A DNA stretch of 40,111 nt from a virus. The translations under genes and the position numbers were made by a program. Under the pieces are notes generated by a model. That model was not told where the DNA came from. It did no database searches and saw only the letters and a list, made by a program, of their open reading frames with translations. Of the stretch, positions 3,807 to 31,718 are shown piece after piece. Each line of letters opens with the position of its first letter. The stretch's first letter is position 1. Location of the stretch: IMG/VR virus record IMGVR_UViG_3300020171_000012, positions 1-40,111 of that record. The stretch is one strand, 5' to 3'.

Positions 3807-3989
3807 TCAGCTATATAGAGCAATGTCCACCTCGCCAATCTTGATATGCAATGCAGAACACTTCTCTCCGTGAACTTCAAACCCTGAAATTATCAGATTT
3901 AATATTTCCGAATATCGGCGGATTTCCGATTCAGGAACTCGAAGTATTCGGATATTGTCTTTTGCTTCGTAGTTGGTTATTACGTCCAT
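3807..3989 (-). CDS. Hypothetical protein (60 aa)
   Basis: ATG at 3989 follows GAGGGGGTGAGTG, and this purine-rich ribosome site forms the end of the structured segment upstream. The protein contains an amphipathic helix (SEIRRYSEILNLIISGF) and a beta hairpin (ALHIKIGEVDIALY). No family recognised. A link to the putative RNA is possible only because of adjacency. Confidence 0.6.
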   Translation of the reverse strand: MDVITNYEAKDNIRILRVPESEIRRYSEILNLIISGFEVHGEKCSALHIKIGEVDIALYS

Positions 3990-4010
3990 CACTCACCCCC
4001 TCGTCCGTTC

Positions 4011-4207
4011 GGCTTTCTTGTTTGCTCGTCTCTCCGAGCTGTCAAGCCACTTCGTAGGTTTCACGTTGGTGGGACAGGATTTGGTACCTGCATGACGTAG
4101 CCAACTCCATTGCTGATAGTCGGTTCTGCGCTACACAGTACGTCAACATAGCTCCTCGCTATTGCGTCTACTTATCGCTTAAAATCGCTTCCGCCACCCA
4201 CCAAACC
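4011..4207 (-). ncRNA. Candidate structured RNA, about 200 nt, nested multi-stem
   Basis: Between two genes lies a stretch without a normal gene but with many complementary segments when read on the minus strand. Closing stem: 4197-4204 with 4066-4073 (8 perfect pairs, UUGGUGGG/CCCACCAA), extended by 4204-4207 with 4057-4060. Inside: a perfect hairpin 4158-4162/4148-4152 with loop GAGGA; an arm 4139-4145/4093-4099 (7 perfect pairs) that encloses a hairpin 4134-4138/4126-4130 and a hairpin 4119-4123/4101-4105. On the 3' side a two-tier hairpin: 4044-4048/4011-4015 around 4035-4039/4024-4028 with loop GAGAGA. Short frames exist but are broken by stops. The segment begins right after ATGA. Family unassigned; an orphan HEARO/omega-RNA is one possibility, although no IscB or other HNH gene is present in the genome. 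Confidence 0.6.
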
Positions 4208-4226
4208 GTTCATATGCAGTTTTCCA

Positions 4227-4451
4227 TTATGCTTTTATCTCCCTGTTCGGAAACCGCCTTAAATGATAGTCAGAGAAATACCGCTTCAGCAGGGCATCAA
4301 AAAGATTTTTCGTTATATCCTTACTGTTGCCCTCTGCTGTGAACCTATCAAAAGCATTGAAAATCTCCGTGTACGGTGTCAATTGTTGCTTCGGTTCACT
4401 TCTCCGTAACGCCCCGTACCACTTAACTATCCATTTTATTATTATTTTCAT
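4227..4451 (-). CDS. Hypothetical basic protein with N-terminal hydrophobic helix (74 aa)
   Basis: ATG at 4451 overlaps the stop of the upstream zinc-ribbon gene (TAATG) and follows AGGAGGGGGAATA. Residues 1-14 (MKIIIKWIVKWYGA) form a short amphipathic or membrane-surface helix; the rest is soluble, with FNAFDRFTAEG and a basic tail. No family recognised. It is the last gene before the candidate structured RNA. Confidence 0.65.
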   Translation of the reverse strand: MKIIIKWIVKWYGALRRSEPKQQLTPYTEIFNAFDRFTAEGNSKDITKNLFDALLKRYFSDYHLRRFPNREIKA

Positions 4452-4690
4452 TATTCCCCCTCCTTTTCTAACCATCCAAGCTTTTCTGTCGCCTCGTCAA
4501 CTGTCCATTCTGTATTTTCAACATAGTAGGGCAATGGATTGCAGGAACAACTAACTGCCACCTCACCATTAAAACAAGCTGGATTACAACACCGGCCACC
4601 AAGCCCGCCGCATATCACGCATGGCACGGAATTGTAGCCGTTTGTGCATAGATGACAGCCTTTAGTATAGACGTATTTTTTAGGTTTCAT
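4451..4690 (-). CDS. Cysteine-rich zinc-binding protein, DnaJ zinc-finger-like (79 aa)
   Basis: I chose ATG at 4690, six bases after GGAGG, over a TTG six bases upstream. The protein has about ten cysteines between residues 13 and 52, including CHLC, CVICGGLGG and CSC. The CxxCxG-type pattern resembles the zinc centre of DnaJ. The tail is acidic. Such proteins bind zinc and often unfolded protein or nucleic acid; the partner is unknown. It overlaps the next gene by one base. Confidence 0.7.
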   Translation of the reverse strand: MKPKKYVYTKGCHLCTNGYNSVPCVICGGLGGRCCNPACFNGEVAVSCSCNPLPYYVENTEWTVDEATEKLGWLEKEGE

Positions 4691-21572: not shown

Positions 21573-22733
21573 TTATAACCTCACCCACCAAAGAGATTCT
21601 ACTAAATTAATATTATCGAATTTTTCCTCCACAGCTCTTTTAACCCCTGGCCAATTATAGTCATGGCCACATATATATTTATTGCACTTCGGGAGCCATG
21701 CCTCGATGTCTTTCTTGCACCCTTCGTAAGTATGGTCAGCGTCTATGAAAACCATATCAACCCTATCGCCATTAAACCTATTGGCAGCAGATAAAGAATC
21801 TTCCTTCATTATAATAAGGTTGTCTCTTGAGCCGACATTCTCAATAAACTGCTTATACACATCTTCTTTTAAGGCAAGAATGCCGCTAATATCTGTTTCA
21901 GTACCTTTCCAATGGTCTATTGCGTACACCTTGCCTTTGCATGACTTTAATAATTTATTAGTACTTCTTCCTTTCCAACTACCAATTTCTGCAACAGACT
22001 CACAATTAGAAGCTAAAAGCCCAAGCACGTTTAATTCTGAATCAGAAGTCCACTTACAAGAATTGTCCTGGAGGGCTCTTTCTGATAAGTAATTATGAAA
22101 GTTCCCGGTAAAATGCTTAATGCCGGTATGAACGAAATTTATATCTGGAACGATAAACAACTCACCCCCCATAGCAACCCATTGCTTACAGAAATAAGGG
22201 TCTTCGCCATACCATCTATCATCATTTTCAAACAACACGCCTGTTTTGAAAAAATGATACTTGCCATTCTTGTCTTTCTTTAGATTATAATAATTTACTA
22301 TCTTCTCTAAAGCGGCTCTCTTTATCCTCATAAAGCCCGTTGGAACCATTGTCGCTGTTACAAGACCAGTTGATTCTTCCATGCAATTATTGGTAATGTC
22401 GTCAAATTTTATGTGTGCCGGAAATTCAAGCGAATCTTGTTTGAAAGGATAAACACCAGCTATAATATCTTTGTCGTACAGCAATAACTTTGAAATAGCG
22501 TCATCATCAAAAGCAACATCATCATCTATGAAAACAAAATCGCTGCAATCAGTCTCAAGAAACTTTTGGACACAGATGTTTCTTGCTACGTCTATATATA
22601 TATTGCCCACATGATAATAAATGCTGACATTGTGGCCAATATCTCTTAAATGATGTGTGTTTTTTATAATCGAATCAGCACAAAAAACTGACGAACTCCC
22701 GCTTCTTGATACGATTGCGATAAATATATTCAT
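21573..22733 (-). CDS. Glycosyltransferase (GT-A)-methyltransferase fusion
   Basis: Two enzymes in one 386-residue chain. Residues 1-215: GT-A glycosyltransferase with nucleotide-sugar strand (MNIFIAIVSRSG), the metal motif FVFIDDDVAFDDD near 67-79 and a late GEDPYFCKQW acidic loop. Residues 228-386: class I SAM methyltransferase with motif I VAEIGSWKGRSTN and the Methyltransf_24 hallmark MVFIDADHTYEGCKKDI. It sits among head genes between the head-fibre and gp4-like genes, downstream of a terminator. Likely modifies a virion protein or host glycan and then methylates the sugar; the target is unknown. Confidence 0.8.
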   Translation of the reverse strand: MNIFIAIVSRSGSSSVFCADSIIKNTHHLRDIGHNVSIYYHVGNIYIDVARNICVQKFLETDCSDFVFIDDDVAFDDDAISKLLLYDKDIIAGVYPFKQDSLEFPAHIKFDDITNNCMEESTGLVTATMVPTGFMRIKRAALEKIVNYYNLKKDKNGKYHFFKTGVLFENDDRWYGEDPYFCKQWVAMGGELFIVPDINFVHTGIKHFTGNFHNYLSERALQDNSCKWTSDSELNVLGLLASNCESVAEIGSWKGRSTNKLLKSCKGKVYAIDHWKGTETDISGILALKEDVYKQFIENVGSRDNLIIMKEDSLSAANRFNGDRVDMVFIDADHTYEGCKKDIEAWLPKCNKYICGHDYNWPGVKRAVEEKFDNINLVESLWWVRL

Positions 22734-22750
22734 ACTCTTCCTTTAAAGAA

Positions 22751-22773
22751 GGGGGCAGGAATTACCTACCCCC
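22751..22773 (-). terminator. Hairpin between head-fibre and glycosyltransferase genes
   Basis: On the minus strand GGGGG-T-AGG, loop TAATT, CCT-G-CCCCC, followed by TTCTTT. Eight pairs with one mismatch (T-G) and a short U-rich tail make a partial intrinsic terminator. It would lower expression of genes downstream of the coat and head-fibre genes. Confidence 0.5.
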
Positions 22774-22780
22774 TAATAGT

Positions 22781-22996
22781 TTACGCTATTGTCAATAAAC
22801 CAAGATTGGAAAGAGTCGTTCGCAAAGCATGTAGGTCTGTAGCGATAACAGACGCTACCGTAGCTGTTGCGGTTGAGGTGAAAGTTGTCGTAGGTTTAAC
22901 TATCGGAGTCGCAAGACCGTAAAAGCCGATCTTATCGGTTGACCTCCCGAAGTCCGTACCATCATCATTTCCGTTTCCAATATAATCAACACTCAT
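22781..22996 (-). CDS. Small head fibre or decoration protein (71 aa)
   Basis: ATG at 22996 follows TTGGAGGTATAGAAA. It has a Thr-rich middle (TTTFTSTATATVASV) and the end ATDLHALRTTLSNLGL, a pattern seen in small head-fibre or decoration proteins that form trimeric C-terminal bundles. It directly follows the coat gene, which fits. Confidence 0.6.
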   Translation of the reverse strand: MSVDYIGNGNDDGTDFGRSTDKIGFYGLATPIVKPTTTFTSTATATVASVIATDLHALRTTLSNLGLLTIA

Positions 22997-25111: not shown

Positions 25112-26872
25112 TTAGGCTGGCTGTCCCTGCGGTTTAGGTTGTCCCTGCATTTGAGCCTGTGCCTGTTCCATCTGCTTCTTTATCTCGGTGTATATTTCCT
25201 CGGAGCCGGGGTAATCTGAGTATTTGAAAATAAGCGGTGCAATTACCGAAGACAACTGCGGGGCATACTGCAAGCTCTCTATCATCATGGCTGTCATCTC
25301 CTGCCTCTTAGACGAATAAGAAGCTCCGGCGGTTGCAATTAAATCGTAATTACCTACGGTCAAATCCTTTTCTATTGCCACTTCCCCATTCGGCAAAAAC
25401 CCAGAAGGAACATTCACATCAACAATCTTCTGCTGACCGTCTTCACCCATTATGCTTACCGCCCTCTGGGTGTCGTATATCTTCGGGATCATCTCGATTA
25501 TCTGTCTTCCGGCGTACACTATCGCCCTTGAAAGATTATCAACAAAGGTGTAAGTGCCTTTATCTGATTGAGCTATCCGCGCTATAATTGCCTTGCCGCT
25601 TCTCTCGTTTCCGGCTTCCCCCTTGGAAGACTCGTATCTGCCTAAATGGTCTTCAATGTCGTAAGCGGTTGATTGCATCATGCTAATTATTGCGGCGGGA
25701 ACCTGTGCTTGCGGCTCCCTATGGGGTTTATCAAGGCCGGGAATAGAGTTGTACCGAATATACATCTTGTTTTCTAAATGAGCTTCGTCCCATTCGGCTT
25801 CAAAACCCTTTATCTGCCGATGGTCAACAAAGTACGGATTTTTCGGGGTTAAAGCCACATTCTCCGTTGCCGCCGTAGCCCAATAATTATACATCTGCTG
25901 CGGCCCCTTCGCCCCTCTTGCAAGAGACAAATAATGCTTCGTGCCTCCGCAAACTATCTCATCACCAAGTACGGGAATTATCGGTATATTGCTTCCAACC
26001 CATTCTTTTTCTTTCTCAAGTATCTCGAAGCCGTTTGTCTTGCACCACATAACCTTATGGGTGTTTATTGTTCTTTCCTTGACAATCTCCCCGCCTTTGG
26101 ATTTTATATATTCAATCGTAACCTGACCGCCCAAGCCTATTGTCTCTCCTGTGGCAAGTCGCACTATCTTTTTTTGAACAGGCTCTTTCCAGAAGTATTC
26201 CGCAACCCGGATATTATCTCCCGTATCCCAATCACCTATTAAACTCGGGTCACCTGAAAAACCGGATACGTCGGCATCAGGATACAACTTTTCAAACAGC
26301 TTCTTGTCCACCATTTCCTCTATGAAGCAATATCGGGCATCACTTAATGTGAACTCAACAGCCATAGGGTCAAAATGAACCGATAAAGGGTTTAATATTC
26401 TCTTTATGCGTATCTCCTGGTCAAACGACTGATCTGATACATATTGAGTGGCAAGCCTGAAAAAACCTATAGAGCATGAAACAGCCGCCATATATGCGGT
26501 GTCATAAACGGTTTCAGCAGAACTTAAATACTCAACCTGCCTGATAAGCCCGTTGTAAAGCTCCGCCATTCCGGGGTCTGATTTATTATCTACTGGGATT
26601 ACCTTGATTCGGGGGCGGTTCATCATCTGATCGCCCCGAAGCTGACGTACAAACTTGAGGATTTTATTCGTGGTGATTATCGGCCTTCCGGCCTTTTCTC
26701 TCTTATCTCTTATATCTGAAGGCCATTGACCGGCACCCACATCATAAACAAACCGCAAATCATCCTCTGCGGCAGCATATATGTGCTTCCATTGGTCAAC
26801 ACTTGTTGTGTATTTATCCTTCAGATCATGTAAAAAGTCCTCGTCTGCCCTAACCGATTTCTTTTTTGCCAT
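25112..26872 (-). CDS. Portal protein, P22 gp1-like
   Basis: 586 residues. Typical of the P22-type portal: N-terminal WKHIYAAAEDDLRFVYDVG...WP, the long stem with NKILKFVRQLRGDQMMNRP, SIGFFRLATQYV, and a Gln-rich end (MEQAQAQMQGQPKPQGQ). P22 gp1 is 725 residues, so the barrel helix is reduced here. ATG at 26872 follows AGGAGA; its own promoter with paired operator-like sites is at 26893-26972. It is the DNA channel and packaging docking ring. Confidence 0.85.
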   Translation of the reverse strand: MAKKKSVRADEDFLHDLKDKYTTSVDQWKHIYAAAEDDLRFVYDVGAGQWPSDIRDKREKAGRPIITTNKILKFVRQLRGDQMMNRPRIKVIPVDNKSDPGMAELYNGLIRQVEYLSSAETVYDTAYMAAVSCSIGFFRLATQYVSDQSFDQEIRIKRILNPLSVHFDPMAVEFTLSDARYCFIEEMVDKKLFEKLYPDADVSGFSGDPSLIGDWDTGDNIRVAEYFWKEPVQKKIVRLATGETIGLGGQVTIEYIKSKGGEIVKERTINTHKVMWCKTNGFEILEKEKEWVGSNIPIIPVLGDEIVCGGTKHYLSLARGAKGPQQMYNYWATAATENVALTPKNPYFVDHRQIKGFEAEWDEAHLENKMYIRYNSIPGLDKPHREPQAQVPAAIISMMQSTAYDIEDHLGRYESSKGEAGNERSGKAIIARIAQSDKGTYTFVDNLSRAIVYAGRQIIEMIPKIYDTQRAVSIMGEDGQQKIVDVNVPSGFLPNGEVAIEKDLTVGNYDLIATAGASYSSKRQEMTAMMIESLQYAPQLSSVIAPLIFKYSDYPGSEEIYTEIKKQMEQAQAQMQGQPKPQGQPA

Positions 26873-26892
26873 TAGAGTCTCCTAATTTGCAT

Positions 26893-26910
26893 GGATAAAA
26901 AGTATCCACT
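26893..26910. promoter_or_regulatory. Operator-like inverted repeat, copy 1
   Basis: GGATA-N5-TATCC followed by ACT. It lies just downstream of the predicted start of transcription (about 26910) of the portal promoter and matches copy 2 at 26955-26972 at 13 of 15 repeat bases plus the ACT. A repressor or activator binding pair is likely. Confidence 0.55.
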
Positions 26911-26916
26911 TGAGAC

Positions 26917-26945
26917 TCAATAACATCGATTAAAACATGTGTCAA
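26917..26945 (-). promoter_or_regulatory. Portal/structural promoter
   Basis: On the minus strand TTGACA (26940-26945), 17-base spacer, TATTGA (26917-26922). It lies in the 145-base gap between large terminase and portal and would start a transcript near 26910 with a leader of about 38 bases, bracketed by the two inverted repeats. Confidence 0.6.
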
Positions 26946-26954
26946 CATAAATCT

Positions 26955-26972
26955 GGATACTTAGTATCCACT
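26955..26972. promoter_or_regulatory. Operator-like inverted repeat, copy 2
   Basis: GGATAC-TTA-GTATCC followed by ACT, a perfect six-pair repeat. It lies 10 bases upstream of the -35 box of the portal promoter. Centre-to-centre distance to copy 1 is 62 bases, about six helical turns, which would allow looping. Confidence 0.55.
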
Positions 26973-27017
26973 ATGTATCTTTTTGGCTACACTCGGAATG
27001 ACAAAAATTGGCAGGGC

Positions 27018-31120: not shown

Positions 31121-31444
31121 ATGAACAGAAACGAACTCATAGAAAAATTATCAGCAATTACAGGCGGAACGTGGGTCGATGGAATGGGGCAAAACAGCGT
31201 AACAGATTTTGTTACAATCCCGGAAAAACTCCAGGAGGATGTTGAAATAATGGACGCGATTTGGTGGGCAGTTGAACATGAAATCGAGCAAACATTAGAC
31301 GCGGCTGCGGAATGTGTTGACGCGGACACGCTCGGAGAAAATGAAACGGCGAGCGGAATCGTTTGGGAAAAATGGTGTAACTGCCAAATAGAAGCTGATT
31401 TTTCCCAAATACAGGCGATAATAGACCGGTGGGAAAATATTTAA
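31121..31444 (+). CDS. Hypothetical acidic protein, first gene of the rightward operon (107 aa)
   Basis: ATG at 31121 follows GGCGGGAAAA. It is acidic and mostly helical (ELIEKLSAITGG, AIWWAVEHEIEQTL, SQIQAIIDRWENI). No family recognised. As promoter-proximal gene of the only plus-strand operon it may be an early takeover protein. Confidence 0.7.
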   Translation: MNRNELIEKLSAITGGTWVDGMGQNSVTDFVTIPEKLQEDVEIMDAIWWAVEHEIEQTLDAAAECVDADTLGENETASGIVWEKWCNCQIEADFSQIQAIIDRWENI

Positions 31445-31454
31445 CCTTTTACCC

Positions 31455-31484
31455 TGTTTCCGGGCGCGGGATGATCCGGAAACA
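31455..31484 (+). promoter_or_regulatory. Perfect nine-pair hairpin between rightward genes 1 and 2
   Basis: TGTTTCCGG (31455-31463) pairs with CCGGAAACA (31476-31484) around a 12-base loop. Outer TTAACC...GGTTAA (31441-31446 and 31494-31499) extends it. Not followed by a T run, so it is probably a processing or translation-control element and not a terminator. Confidence 0.5.
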
Positions 31485-31520
31485 GATATAAGGGGTTAAA
31501 CAACAACAACGGAGGGCGCC

Positions 31521-31718
31521 ATGGAAACCATGATTGATATATTCGGCAAAAAACAGGAGCTTGAATTTATAAGAAAAGCAACAAAACGGGAAACGTACTC
31601 CTGTCAATCGGGATTCAGGACTATACCCGTAAAGGCTGGATATCAGCGTGTTTTTATGGCGTACAGAGCGGAAGGAAACGGAAAAGGGTATTATTATCAA
31701 AAAGAAATAAACGAATAA
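31521..31718 (+). CDS. Small basic protein (65 aa)
   Basis: ATG at 31521 follows ACGGAGGGCGCC. Basic and beta-rich (RETYSCQSGFRTIPVKAGYQRVFMAYRAEG). No family recognised; conserved-looking GYQRVFMAYRA strand. Confidence 0.6.
   Translation: METMIDIFGKKQELEFIRKATKRETYSCQSGFRTIPVKAGYQRVFMAYRAEGNGKGYYYQKEINE

What the first reader, a model, noticed from the sequence alone, without database searches (positions are those of the whole stretch)
4011..4207. A highly structured, gene-free 200-nt segment: candidate new or orphan noncoding RNA
Read on the minus strand, six stems pair without crossing: an eight-pair closing stem, an enclosed perfect five-pair hairpin with GAGGA loop, a seven-pair arm with two inner hairpins, and a 3' two-tier hairpin with GAGAGA loop. 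This density is far above what coding neighbours show, and frames inside are broken by stops. It starts just after ATGA and ends at the ribosome site of the next gene. Size and the ATGA border recall HEARO/omega RNAs as I remember them, but no IscB-like gene is present, so it could be an orphan guide RNA, an insertion remnant, a phage regulatory RNA or an unknown class.
Basis: partly seen in the sequence, partly recalled or inferred. Interest (0 to 1): 0.8.

Follow-up and report, generated by a model that had tools for sequence, protein, structure and literature searches.

The report
Phage tRNA-like RNA that cannot decode
The segment encodes a degenerate transfer-RNA look-alike that keeps the 'top half' of a tRNA but has lost a usable anticodon, followed by a small hairpin; both parts recur in many unrelated phages and neither is an Rfam family.

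Summary
The stems are real, but fold energy alone is not exceptional (z about -2; 14 of 211 other minus-strand stretches are as low). What the RNA is was settled by comparison. Window 4203-4067 (-) is a Leu-type (class II) tRNA-derived RNA: 7-bp acceptor stem, U8/A14, 3-bp D-stem, T-arm, with a 25-nt D-loop and a 72-nt interior holding a 5-nt-loop hairpin and a branched arm instead of an anticodon arm and normal variable arm. A covariance model of 36 phage tRNA-Leu-like RNAs, built without the window, finds it at 37.2 bits (E=1.4e-6; next best in the window 11.3 bits). A model of its own T-loop-variant subclass gives 57.2 bits. Downstream (4044-4024) is a second element, UGACA-N4-GGARAGAC-N4'-A, found in well over 100 viral contigs with strongly covarying stems, often about 5 nt before tRNAs or tRNA-like RNAs. 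HEARO/omega, GOLLD, ROOL and introns are not supported. The wider class (constant tRNA top half, hypervariable non-decoding interior) occurs in at least 120 viral stretches for one acceptor sequence alone. I found no description in Rfam or the papers searched. Best guess: host tRNA-processing enzymes act on it, as mRNA punctuation and/or a tRNA mimic. Identity is strong; function is inferred.

The parts
4067..4203 (-). tRNA(Leu-type)-like, non-decoding RNA domain, 137 nt
   Evidence: Model R1 (36 phage tRNA-Leu-like RNAs, window not in training): 37.2 bits, E=1.4e-6 over the whole window with filters off, next hit 11.3 bits. Model R2 (T-loop-variant subclass, window not in training): 57.2 bits, E=2.1e-11, next 12.6. 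Only descriptor hit in the window.
4197..4203 (-). acceptor stem 5' strand UGGUGGG
   Evidence: 7/7 pairs with 4067-4073; L400 carries the identical 5' strand UGGUGGG
4192..4196 (-). U8-G9 and D-stem 5' strand GCG (class-II motif UGGCGGAA)
   Evidence: UGGCGGAA; U8 and A14 invariant in alignment A3
4164..4191 (-). 25-nt D-loop (insert, no GG) and D-stem 3' strand CGC
   Evidence: similar D-loop inserts in L401, L407, L043, L031
4148..4162 (-). hairpin AUAGC-GAGGA-GCUAU at the place of the anticodon arm, 5-nt loop instead of 7
   Evidence: MFE and centroid
4093..4145 (-). branched arm with two inner hairpins at the place of the variable arm
   Evidence: MFE and centroid; hypervariable region of the family
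4074..4091 (-). T-arm GCAGG-UACCAAAU-CCUGU with variant 8-nt T-loop
   Evidence: variant loop UAYCAAAU recurs in 21 viral stretches, at least 11 distinct ones with a Leu-type D-arm and acceptor
4067..4073 (-). acceptor stem 3' strand CCCACCA, followed by A (discriminator position) and no encoded CCA
   Evidence: the next bases are ACGUGA
4045..4066 (-). 22-nt linker
   Evidence: sequence
4023..4044 (-). phage hairpin module UGACA-GCUC-GGAGAGAC-GAGC-A
4227..4475 (-). upstream flanking ORF, function unknown
   Evidence: no Pfam match
3807..3992 (-). downstream flanking ORF, function unknown
   Evidence: no Pfam match

Best explanation
Identity (shown by comparison): 4203-4067 (-) is a phage-encoded, non-decoding tRNA(Leu-type)-like RNA. 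It belongs to a large family of phage RNAs that keep the acceptor stem, U8/A14, the short D-stem and the T-arm of a class II tRNA, while the anticodon and variable regions are replaced by an interior of free length and sequence. It is followed by a separate, widespread phage hairpin, UGACA-N4-GGARAGAC-N4'-A. Mechanism (inferred): the RNA is transcribed as part of a co-oriented phage operon, and its conserved top half is recognised by host tRNA enzymes (RNase P at the 5' end, then 3' trimming and CCA addition). That would cut the operon transcript there ('punctuation') and release a stable tRNA mimic. The interior varies because the partners read only the top half. The hairpin would be a further processing or protein-binding mark that phages place between RNA units. 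Rough confidence: identity 0.9, top-half-recognition mechanism 0.35.
For: R1, trained without the window on RNAs with normal T-loops, hits 4203-4067 at 37.2 bits, E=1.4e-6, against a next best of 11.3 bits. R2 gives 57.2 bits, E=2.1e-11. 49 control viral loci (260 kb) gave one R1 hit at 24.9 bits and no R2 hit at E<=1. Relatives found by the T-arm motif alone: 10 of 19 carry the D-arm motif (about 1% expected), and acceptor positions 1-5 pair in 47 of 50 cells (about 19 expected) with 8 different acceptors. Covariation in A3: 25 both-side changes against 6.7 shuffled, including the D-stem. In a sample fixed only by a 25-mer 5' end, 83 of 96 have the 3' acceptor partner, 80 of 83 a canonical T-loop just before it, length 72-161 nt, and 0 of 83 a 5-bp/7-nt anticodon arm. 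Interiors show no excess structure (mean z -0.11) and little shared sequence, so conservation lies in the top half. Flanking genes in the window are co-oriented; in the sample 43 of 83 are co-oriented on both sides and 10 opposite on both. Hairpin: 45 of 56 distinct relatives have a full 4-bp stem; 55 both-side changes against 19 shuffled; within 45 nt upstream of 8 of 83 tRNA-like RNAs against 0.05 expected; it ends about 5 nt before the 5' end of many tRNAs and tRNA-like RNAs and of a tmRNA in L110, i.e. just before RNase P sites.
Against: No transcript or processing data. No relative of the window's own locus was found, so its interior has no covariation test. The window's T-loop and D-loop depart from the normal elbow (8-nt loop, no GG), and bacterial RNase P and several tRNA enzymes contact that elbow (own knowledge), so processing may fail. 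In the window the hairpin lies after, not before, the tRNA-like RNA. The window's interior is somewhat more structured than shuffles (z -1.27). R2 members were collected with the window's T-loop motif, so part of that score is circular. In Vibrio phages the hairpin lies on the strand opposite the structural genes, so it is not simply an mRNA mark.
Confidence: 0.62

Rival explanations
1. Trans-acting tRNA mimic or decoy: after processing, the RNA occupies host factors that read tRNA top halves (EF-Tu, CCA-adding enzyme, LeuRS, which is largely anticodon-independent) or absorbs a tRNA-targeting defence nuclease.
For: Leu-type scaffold with U8/A14 kept and A after the acceptor in most relatives; anticodon arm dispensable. 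Several copies per contig, e.g. L031/L032, L061, L223, L241.
Against: No partner known; the window subclass loses the normal D-loop/T-loop contacts; no gene association was tested.
Confidence: 0.27
2. tRNA-scaffolded antisense or guide RNA: the hypervariable interior is the functional, target-specific part and the tRNA shell gives stability and defined ends.
For: Constant scaffold with unrelated interiors (213 of 3403 pairs share any 8-mer); interiors not structured on average.
Against: No excess of complementarity or repeats in the same contig; host targets not testable here.
Confidence: 0.15
3. Decaying tRNA pseudogene left after phage tRNA-array turnover.
For: Phage tRNA arrays turn over quickly (own knowledge); the window copy lacks a normal anticodon arm and T-loop.
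Against: Acceptor pairing is kept by compensatory change (47/50 cells) and the variant T-loop recurs in unrelated contigs; decay would break these first.
Confidence: 0.08
4. HEARO/omega RNA, GOLLD, ROOL, intron or other Rfam class.
Against: No Rfam match in the window at gathering thresholds or at this locus at E<=10 except an unrelated RsmY chance hit; tRNA-like models match instead.
Confidence: 0.01

Closest known systems
Class II (Leu-type) tRNA (Rfam RF00005)
   Same: acceptor stem, U8/A14, D-stem GCG/CGC, T-arm directly before the acceptor 3' strand, A at the discriminator position
   Different: 25-nt D-loop, 5-nt loop where the anticodon loop should be, 53-nt branched arm, 8-nt T-loop UACCAAAU; not detected by ARAGORN or Rfam's tRNA model
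YrlA-type bacterial Y RNAs, reported to mimic tRNAs (title cited in PMC9569102; details from own knowledge)
   Same: noncoding RNA with a tRNA-like domain
   Different: here the tRNA-like part is closed by its own acceptor stem and followed by a hairpin; no Rfam Y RNA match at this locus; no Ro/Rsr found among the 20 window proteins scanned
GOLLD and ROOL (PMC12286853)
   Same: phage ncRNAs of unknown function near tRNA islands; GOLLD sometimes holds a tRNA
   Different: much longer and nanocage-forming; no Rfam match here or in the hairpin-bearing loci scanned
HK022 put RNA (PMC9378689)
   Same: a compact phage RNA element, compared only for the hairpin module
   Different: put is a ~70-nt two-stem element; no sequence relation was tested

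Membership tests
Functional tRNA | 7-bp acceptor stem, D-stem and T-stem in tRNA order | tested here: met
Functional tRNA | 7-nt anticodon loop on a 5-bp stem | tested here: not met
   5-nt loop GAGGA; 0 of 83 family members have the canonical arm
Functional tRNA | canonical T-loop GTTCRANNC | tested here: not met
   8-nt loop TACCAAAT; recurring subclass
Functional tRNA | found by standard tRNA models | tested here: not met
   ARAGORN 0 genes; Rfam tRNA no hit at E<=10
Phage Leu-type tRNA-like family defined here (R1/R2) | significant covariance-model match with the window left out of training | tested here: met
   37.2 bits, E=1.4e-6; 57.2 bits, E=2.1e-11
UGACA-GGARAGAC phage hairpin | UGACA, 4-bp stem, GGARAGAC loop, closing A | tested here: met
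   window 4044-4023; exact 21-mer shared with >=120 viral stretches
HEARO / omega RNA (RF02033) | Rfam covariance-model match | tested here: not met
   no hit at E<=10 in 3900-4330
HEARO / omega RNA (RF02033) | adjacent IscB-like gene | tested here: inconclusive
   flanking ORFs have no Pfam match; not every ORF of the window was scanned
GOLLD / ROOL / group I-II introns | Rfam covariance-model match | tested here: not met
Y RNA / YrlA | Ro-binding stem and Rsr partner gene | tested here: inconclusive
   no Rfam hit; no TROVE/Ro domain in the 10 proteins scanned with Pfam; 10 others scanned with PHROGs only

The most novel reading that the evidence does not exclude
Phages of many hosts carry a large, so far unnamed class of RNAs in which a constant tRNA top half presents a hypervariable, non-decoding interior, with a second widespread phage hairpin (UGACA-N4-GGARAGAC-N4'-A) marking RNA units; together they form a phage RNA system that acts on host tRNA machinery or on targets read by the interior.
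Probability: 0.45. Interest if true: 0.9.

Novelty: new variant of a known kind. Interest (0 to 1): 0.74.

Why it matters
Phage tRNA arrays are usually explained by codon supply. A broad family of tRNA-derived RNAs that cannot decode, yet keep the tRNA top half under compensatory selection, needs another explanation: processing marks, mimicry of tRNA for host enzymes or defence, or a tRNA-scaffolded variable RNA. Ordinary gene finders miss them, and two covariance models and simple motifs now make them countable and testable.

Tried and rejected
Rfam at gathering and at E<=10: nothing relevant. Direct DNA similarity of the whole segment in phages: only the hairpin part matched. Relatives through the flanking ORFs: none. 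Relatives through the nearby methyltransferase: 49 loci, none with this RNA. Antisense or repeat targets of the interiors in their own contigs: no excess. Interior secondary structure as a family trait: no excess. Fold energy as the main argument: dropped, because other stretches of the window reach the same z. Antitermination (put/nut-like) for the hairpin: considered because RNA polymerase is universal; not tested and weakened by Vibrio phages, where it lies on the opposite strand to the structural genes. The loop GGAAAGAC equals, from memory, the 23S rRNA peptidyl-transferase loop around A2058; not tested. A first sliding-window fold scan timed out. A query with masked interior found nothing in isolated phages. 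A regex check of the four bacterial R2 hits returned nothing, so they are not claimed as members.

Full report
Starting point. The window is a 40,111-base viral record with phage genes: portal, major head, terminase, tail fibre, tape measure, RecT, DnaB-like helicase. The segment lies on the minus strand between two co-oriented ORFs of unknown function. The fold energy alone is weak evidence: z about -2, and 14 of 211 other minus-strand stretches of the same length are as low. No relevant Rfam family matches and ARAGORN sees no tRNA.

The hairpin module. A sensitive search in named phages matched only one part, the 3' hairpin, in intergenic regions of Vibrio and Gordonia phages. A scan with a variable stem (TTGACAHNNNGGAAAGACNNNDAA) gave 56 distinct sites, of which 45 have all four stem pairs, against about 2% by chance, with 17 different stems. 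On 32 distinct sequences, non-pairing background included, 82.8% of cells pair (48.4% in shuffles) and 55 cells change on both sides (19 in shuffles; slid versions at most 14). So UGACA-N4-GGARAGAC-N4'-A is a real RNA hairpin. Hairpin loci have T-loop sequences nearby (within 120 nt upstream in 53 of 186, within 140 nt downstream in 75 of 186), and the hairpin often ends about five bases before a tRNA or tRNA-like RNA, once before a tmRNA.

The tRNA-like body. Reading those neighbours showed many RNAs with a Leu-type 5' end (acceptor-TGGCGGAA..GTAGACGC), a normal T-arm and a matching acceptor 3' strand, but unusual interiors. The window segment has the same order of parts. Model R1 was built from 36 of these, without the window. 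Its training rows were chosen by requiring paired acceptor and T-stems, so the covariation counts are biased and are not used as evidence. With filters off, R1 finds one significant place in the window, 4203-4067 (-), at 37.2 bits, E=1.4e-6; the next best is 11.3 bits, E=1.3. A control set of 49 viral loci had one hit, at 24.9 bits. A simple descriptor finds the same single place and gave six hits in 200 one-strand shuffles.

A T-loop-variant subclass. The window's T-loop is an 8-nt UACCAAAU. Searching viral contigs for CAGGTAYCAAATCCTGYCC gave 21 stretches. Among 19 distinct ones other than the window, 10 have a TGGYGRAA D-arm upstream (about 1% expected), and with the 5' end fixed by that motif alone, acceptor positions 1-5 pair in 47 of 50 cells (about 19 expected) with 8 different acceptors; L400 has the window's own 5' acceptor strand UGGUGGG. 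Alignment A3 keeps U8, A14 and A15 and shows compensatory changes in the acceptor and D-stems. Most of these D-loops lack the usual GG, so both halves of the tRNA elbow differ from normal together. Model R2 from this subclass, without the window, gives 57.2 bits, E=2.1e-11, next best 12.6, and no hit in the control loci. It also finds L230 at 68.4 bits; that locus was fetched through the hairpin, not the T-loop. The R2 score is partly circular in the T-arm, because that motif was the search key; the acceptor and D-arm are not.

The wider class. Of 96 distinct usable copies, 83 have the 3' partner CCTGACT and 80 of those 83 a canonical T-loop directly before it; total length is 72-161 nt, median 106. 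None has a 5-bp/7-nt anticodon arm, whereas ordinary tRNA-Leu genes in the same kind of loci do (e.g. L007:6343, L010:1289, L051:385). Interiors share an 8-mer in 213 of 3403 pairs, are no more structured than shuffles (mean z -0.11), and show no excess sense or antisense match in their own contig. The hairpin lies within 45 nt upstream in 8 of 83, against 0.05 expected; this sample was drawn without reference to the hairpin. No close match of this type was seen in isolated phage records. R2 gave 4 weak matches in 148 bacterial genomes of one class, not confirmed by inspection.

How it may work. Shown: tRNA top half kept by compensatory change; decoding part lost; separate hairpin module; position between co-oriented genes. 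Inferred: host tRNA enzymes read the top half, cutting the operon RNA and releasing a tRNA mimic. The non-standard elbow of the window's subclass is the main worry, because RNase P and others contact it (own knowledge). Rivals are a trans-acting decoy, a tRNA-scaffolded guide, and decay; decay is disfavoured by the covariation.

Limits. E-values of the home-made models are rough. Literature search covered open-licence papers only; no paper holding the hairpin sequence, or combining the terms tried, described this class, which does not prove it is undescribed. No expression data were available.

Noticed in passing
L282-L397 and L028, L031, L032, L035: At least 120 viral stretches share the exact 5' end AGTCAGGTGGCGGAATGGTAGACGC of a tRNA-Leu-like RNA with hypervariable, non-decoding interiors of about 23-112 nt.
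   Followed up: partly
L005-L124, L196-L281: Widespread phage hairpin UGACA-N4-GGARAGAC-N4'-A with covarying stem, sometimes in tandem (L073, L134, L142).
   Followed up: partly
L008, L036, L056, L080, L089, L094, L111, L130, L132: With the GGAGAGAC loop, the hairpin is often directly preceded by a second stem, (G/A)ACGCC...GGCG, in short gaps between phage genes.
   Followed up: no
L002 about 2110-2870, L003 about 2130-2815: Vibrio siphophages have a largely unannotated region of about 700 nt near the major capsid gene, with the hairpin on the strand opposite the structural genes, an embedded tRNA and a terminator-like end; no Rfam match except tRNA.
   Followed up: partly
L195 400-1930: crAss-like phage cr272_1 has a 1.5-kb noncoding region with several variant copies of the hairpin and a RAGATH-1 hammerhead ribozyme (1069-1141).
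   Followed up: no
L194 500-660: Iodobacter phage PhiPLPE: the hairpin is followed by a tRNA-like element enclosed in a perfect 16-bp helix.
   Followed up: no
L193 1217-2075: Bacillus phage 055SW001 has about 860 nt without annotated genes, containing the hairpin, after the capsid maturation protease gene.
   Followed up: no
L025:3651, L037:5103, L039:4448: ARAGORN reports tRNA-??? with 2- or 4-base anticodons right after the hairpin, possibly members of the same tRNA-like class.
   Followed up: partly
L110 1543-1876 (-): A complete tmRNA gene in a viral contig; its 5' end lies about 5 nt after the hairpin, the same spacing as for tRNAs.
   Followed up: no
window 31365-31561, 26805-27001, 22625-22821 (-): Stretches whose fold energy is lower relative to shuffles (z about -4, 20 shuffles each) than the reported segment.
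   Followed up: no
hairpin loop, e.g. window 4035-4028: The common loop form GGAAAGAC is, from memory, identical to 23S rRNA around A2058 in the peptidyl-transferase centre; could be chance (8 nt).
   Followed up: no
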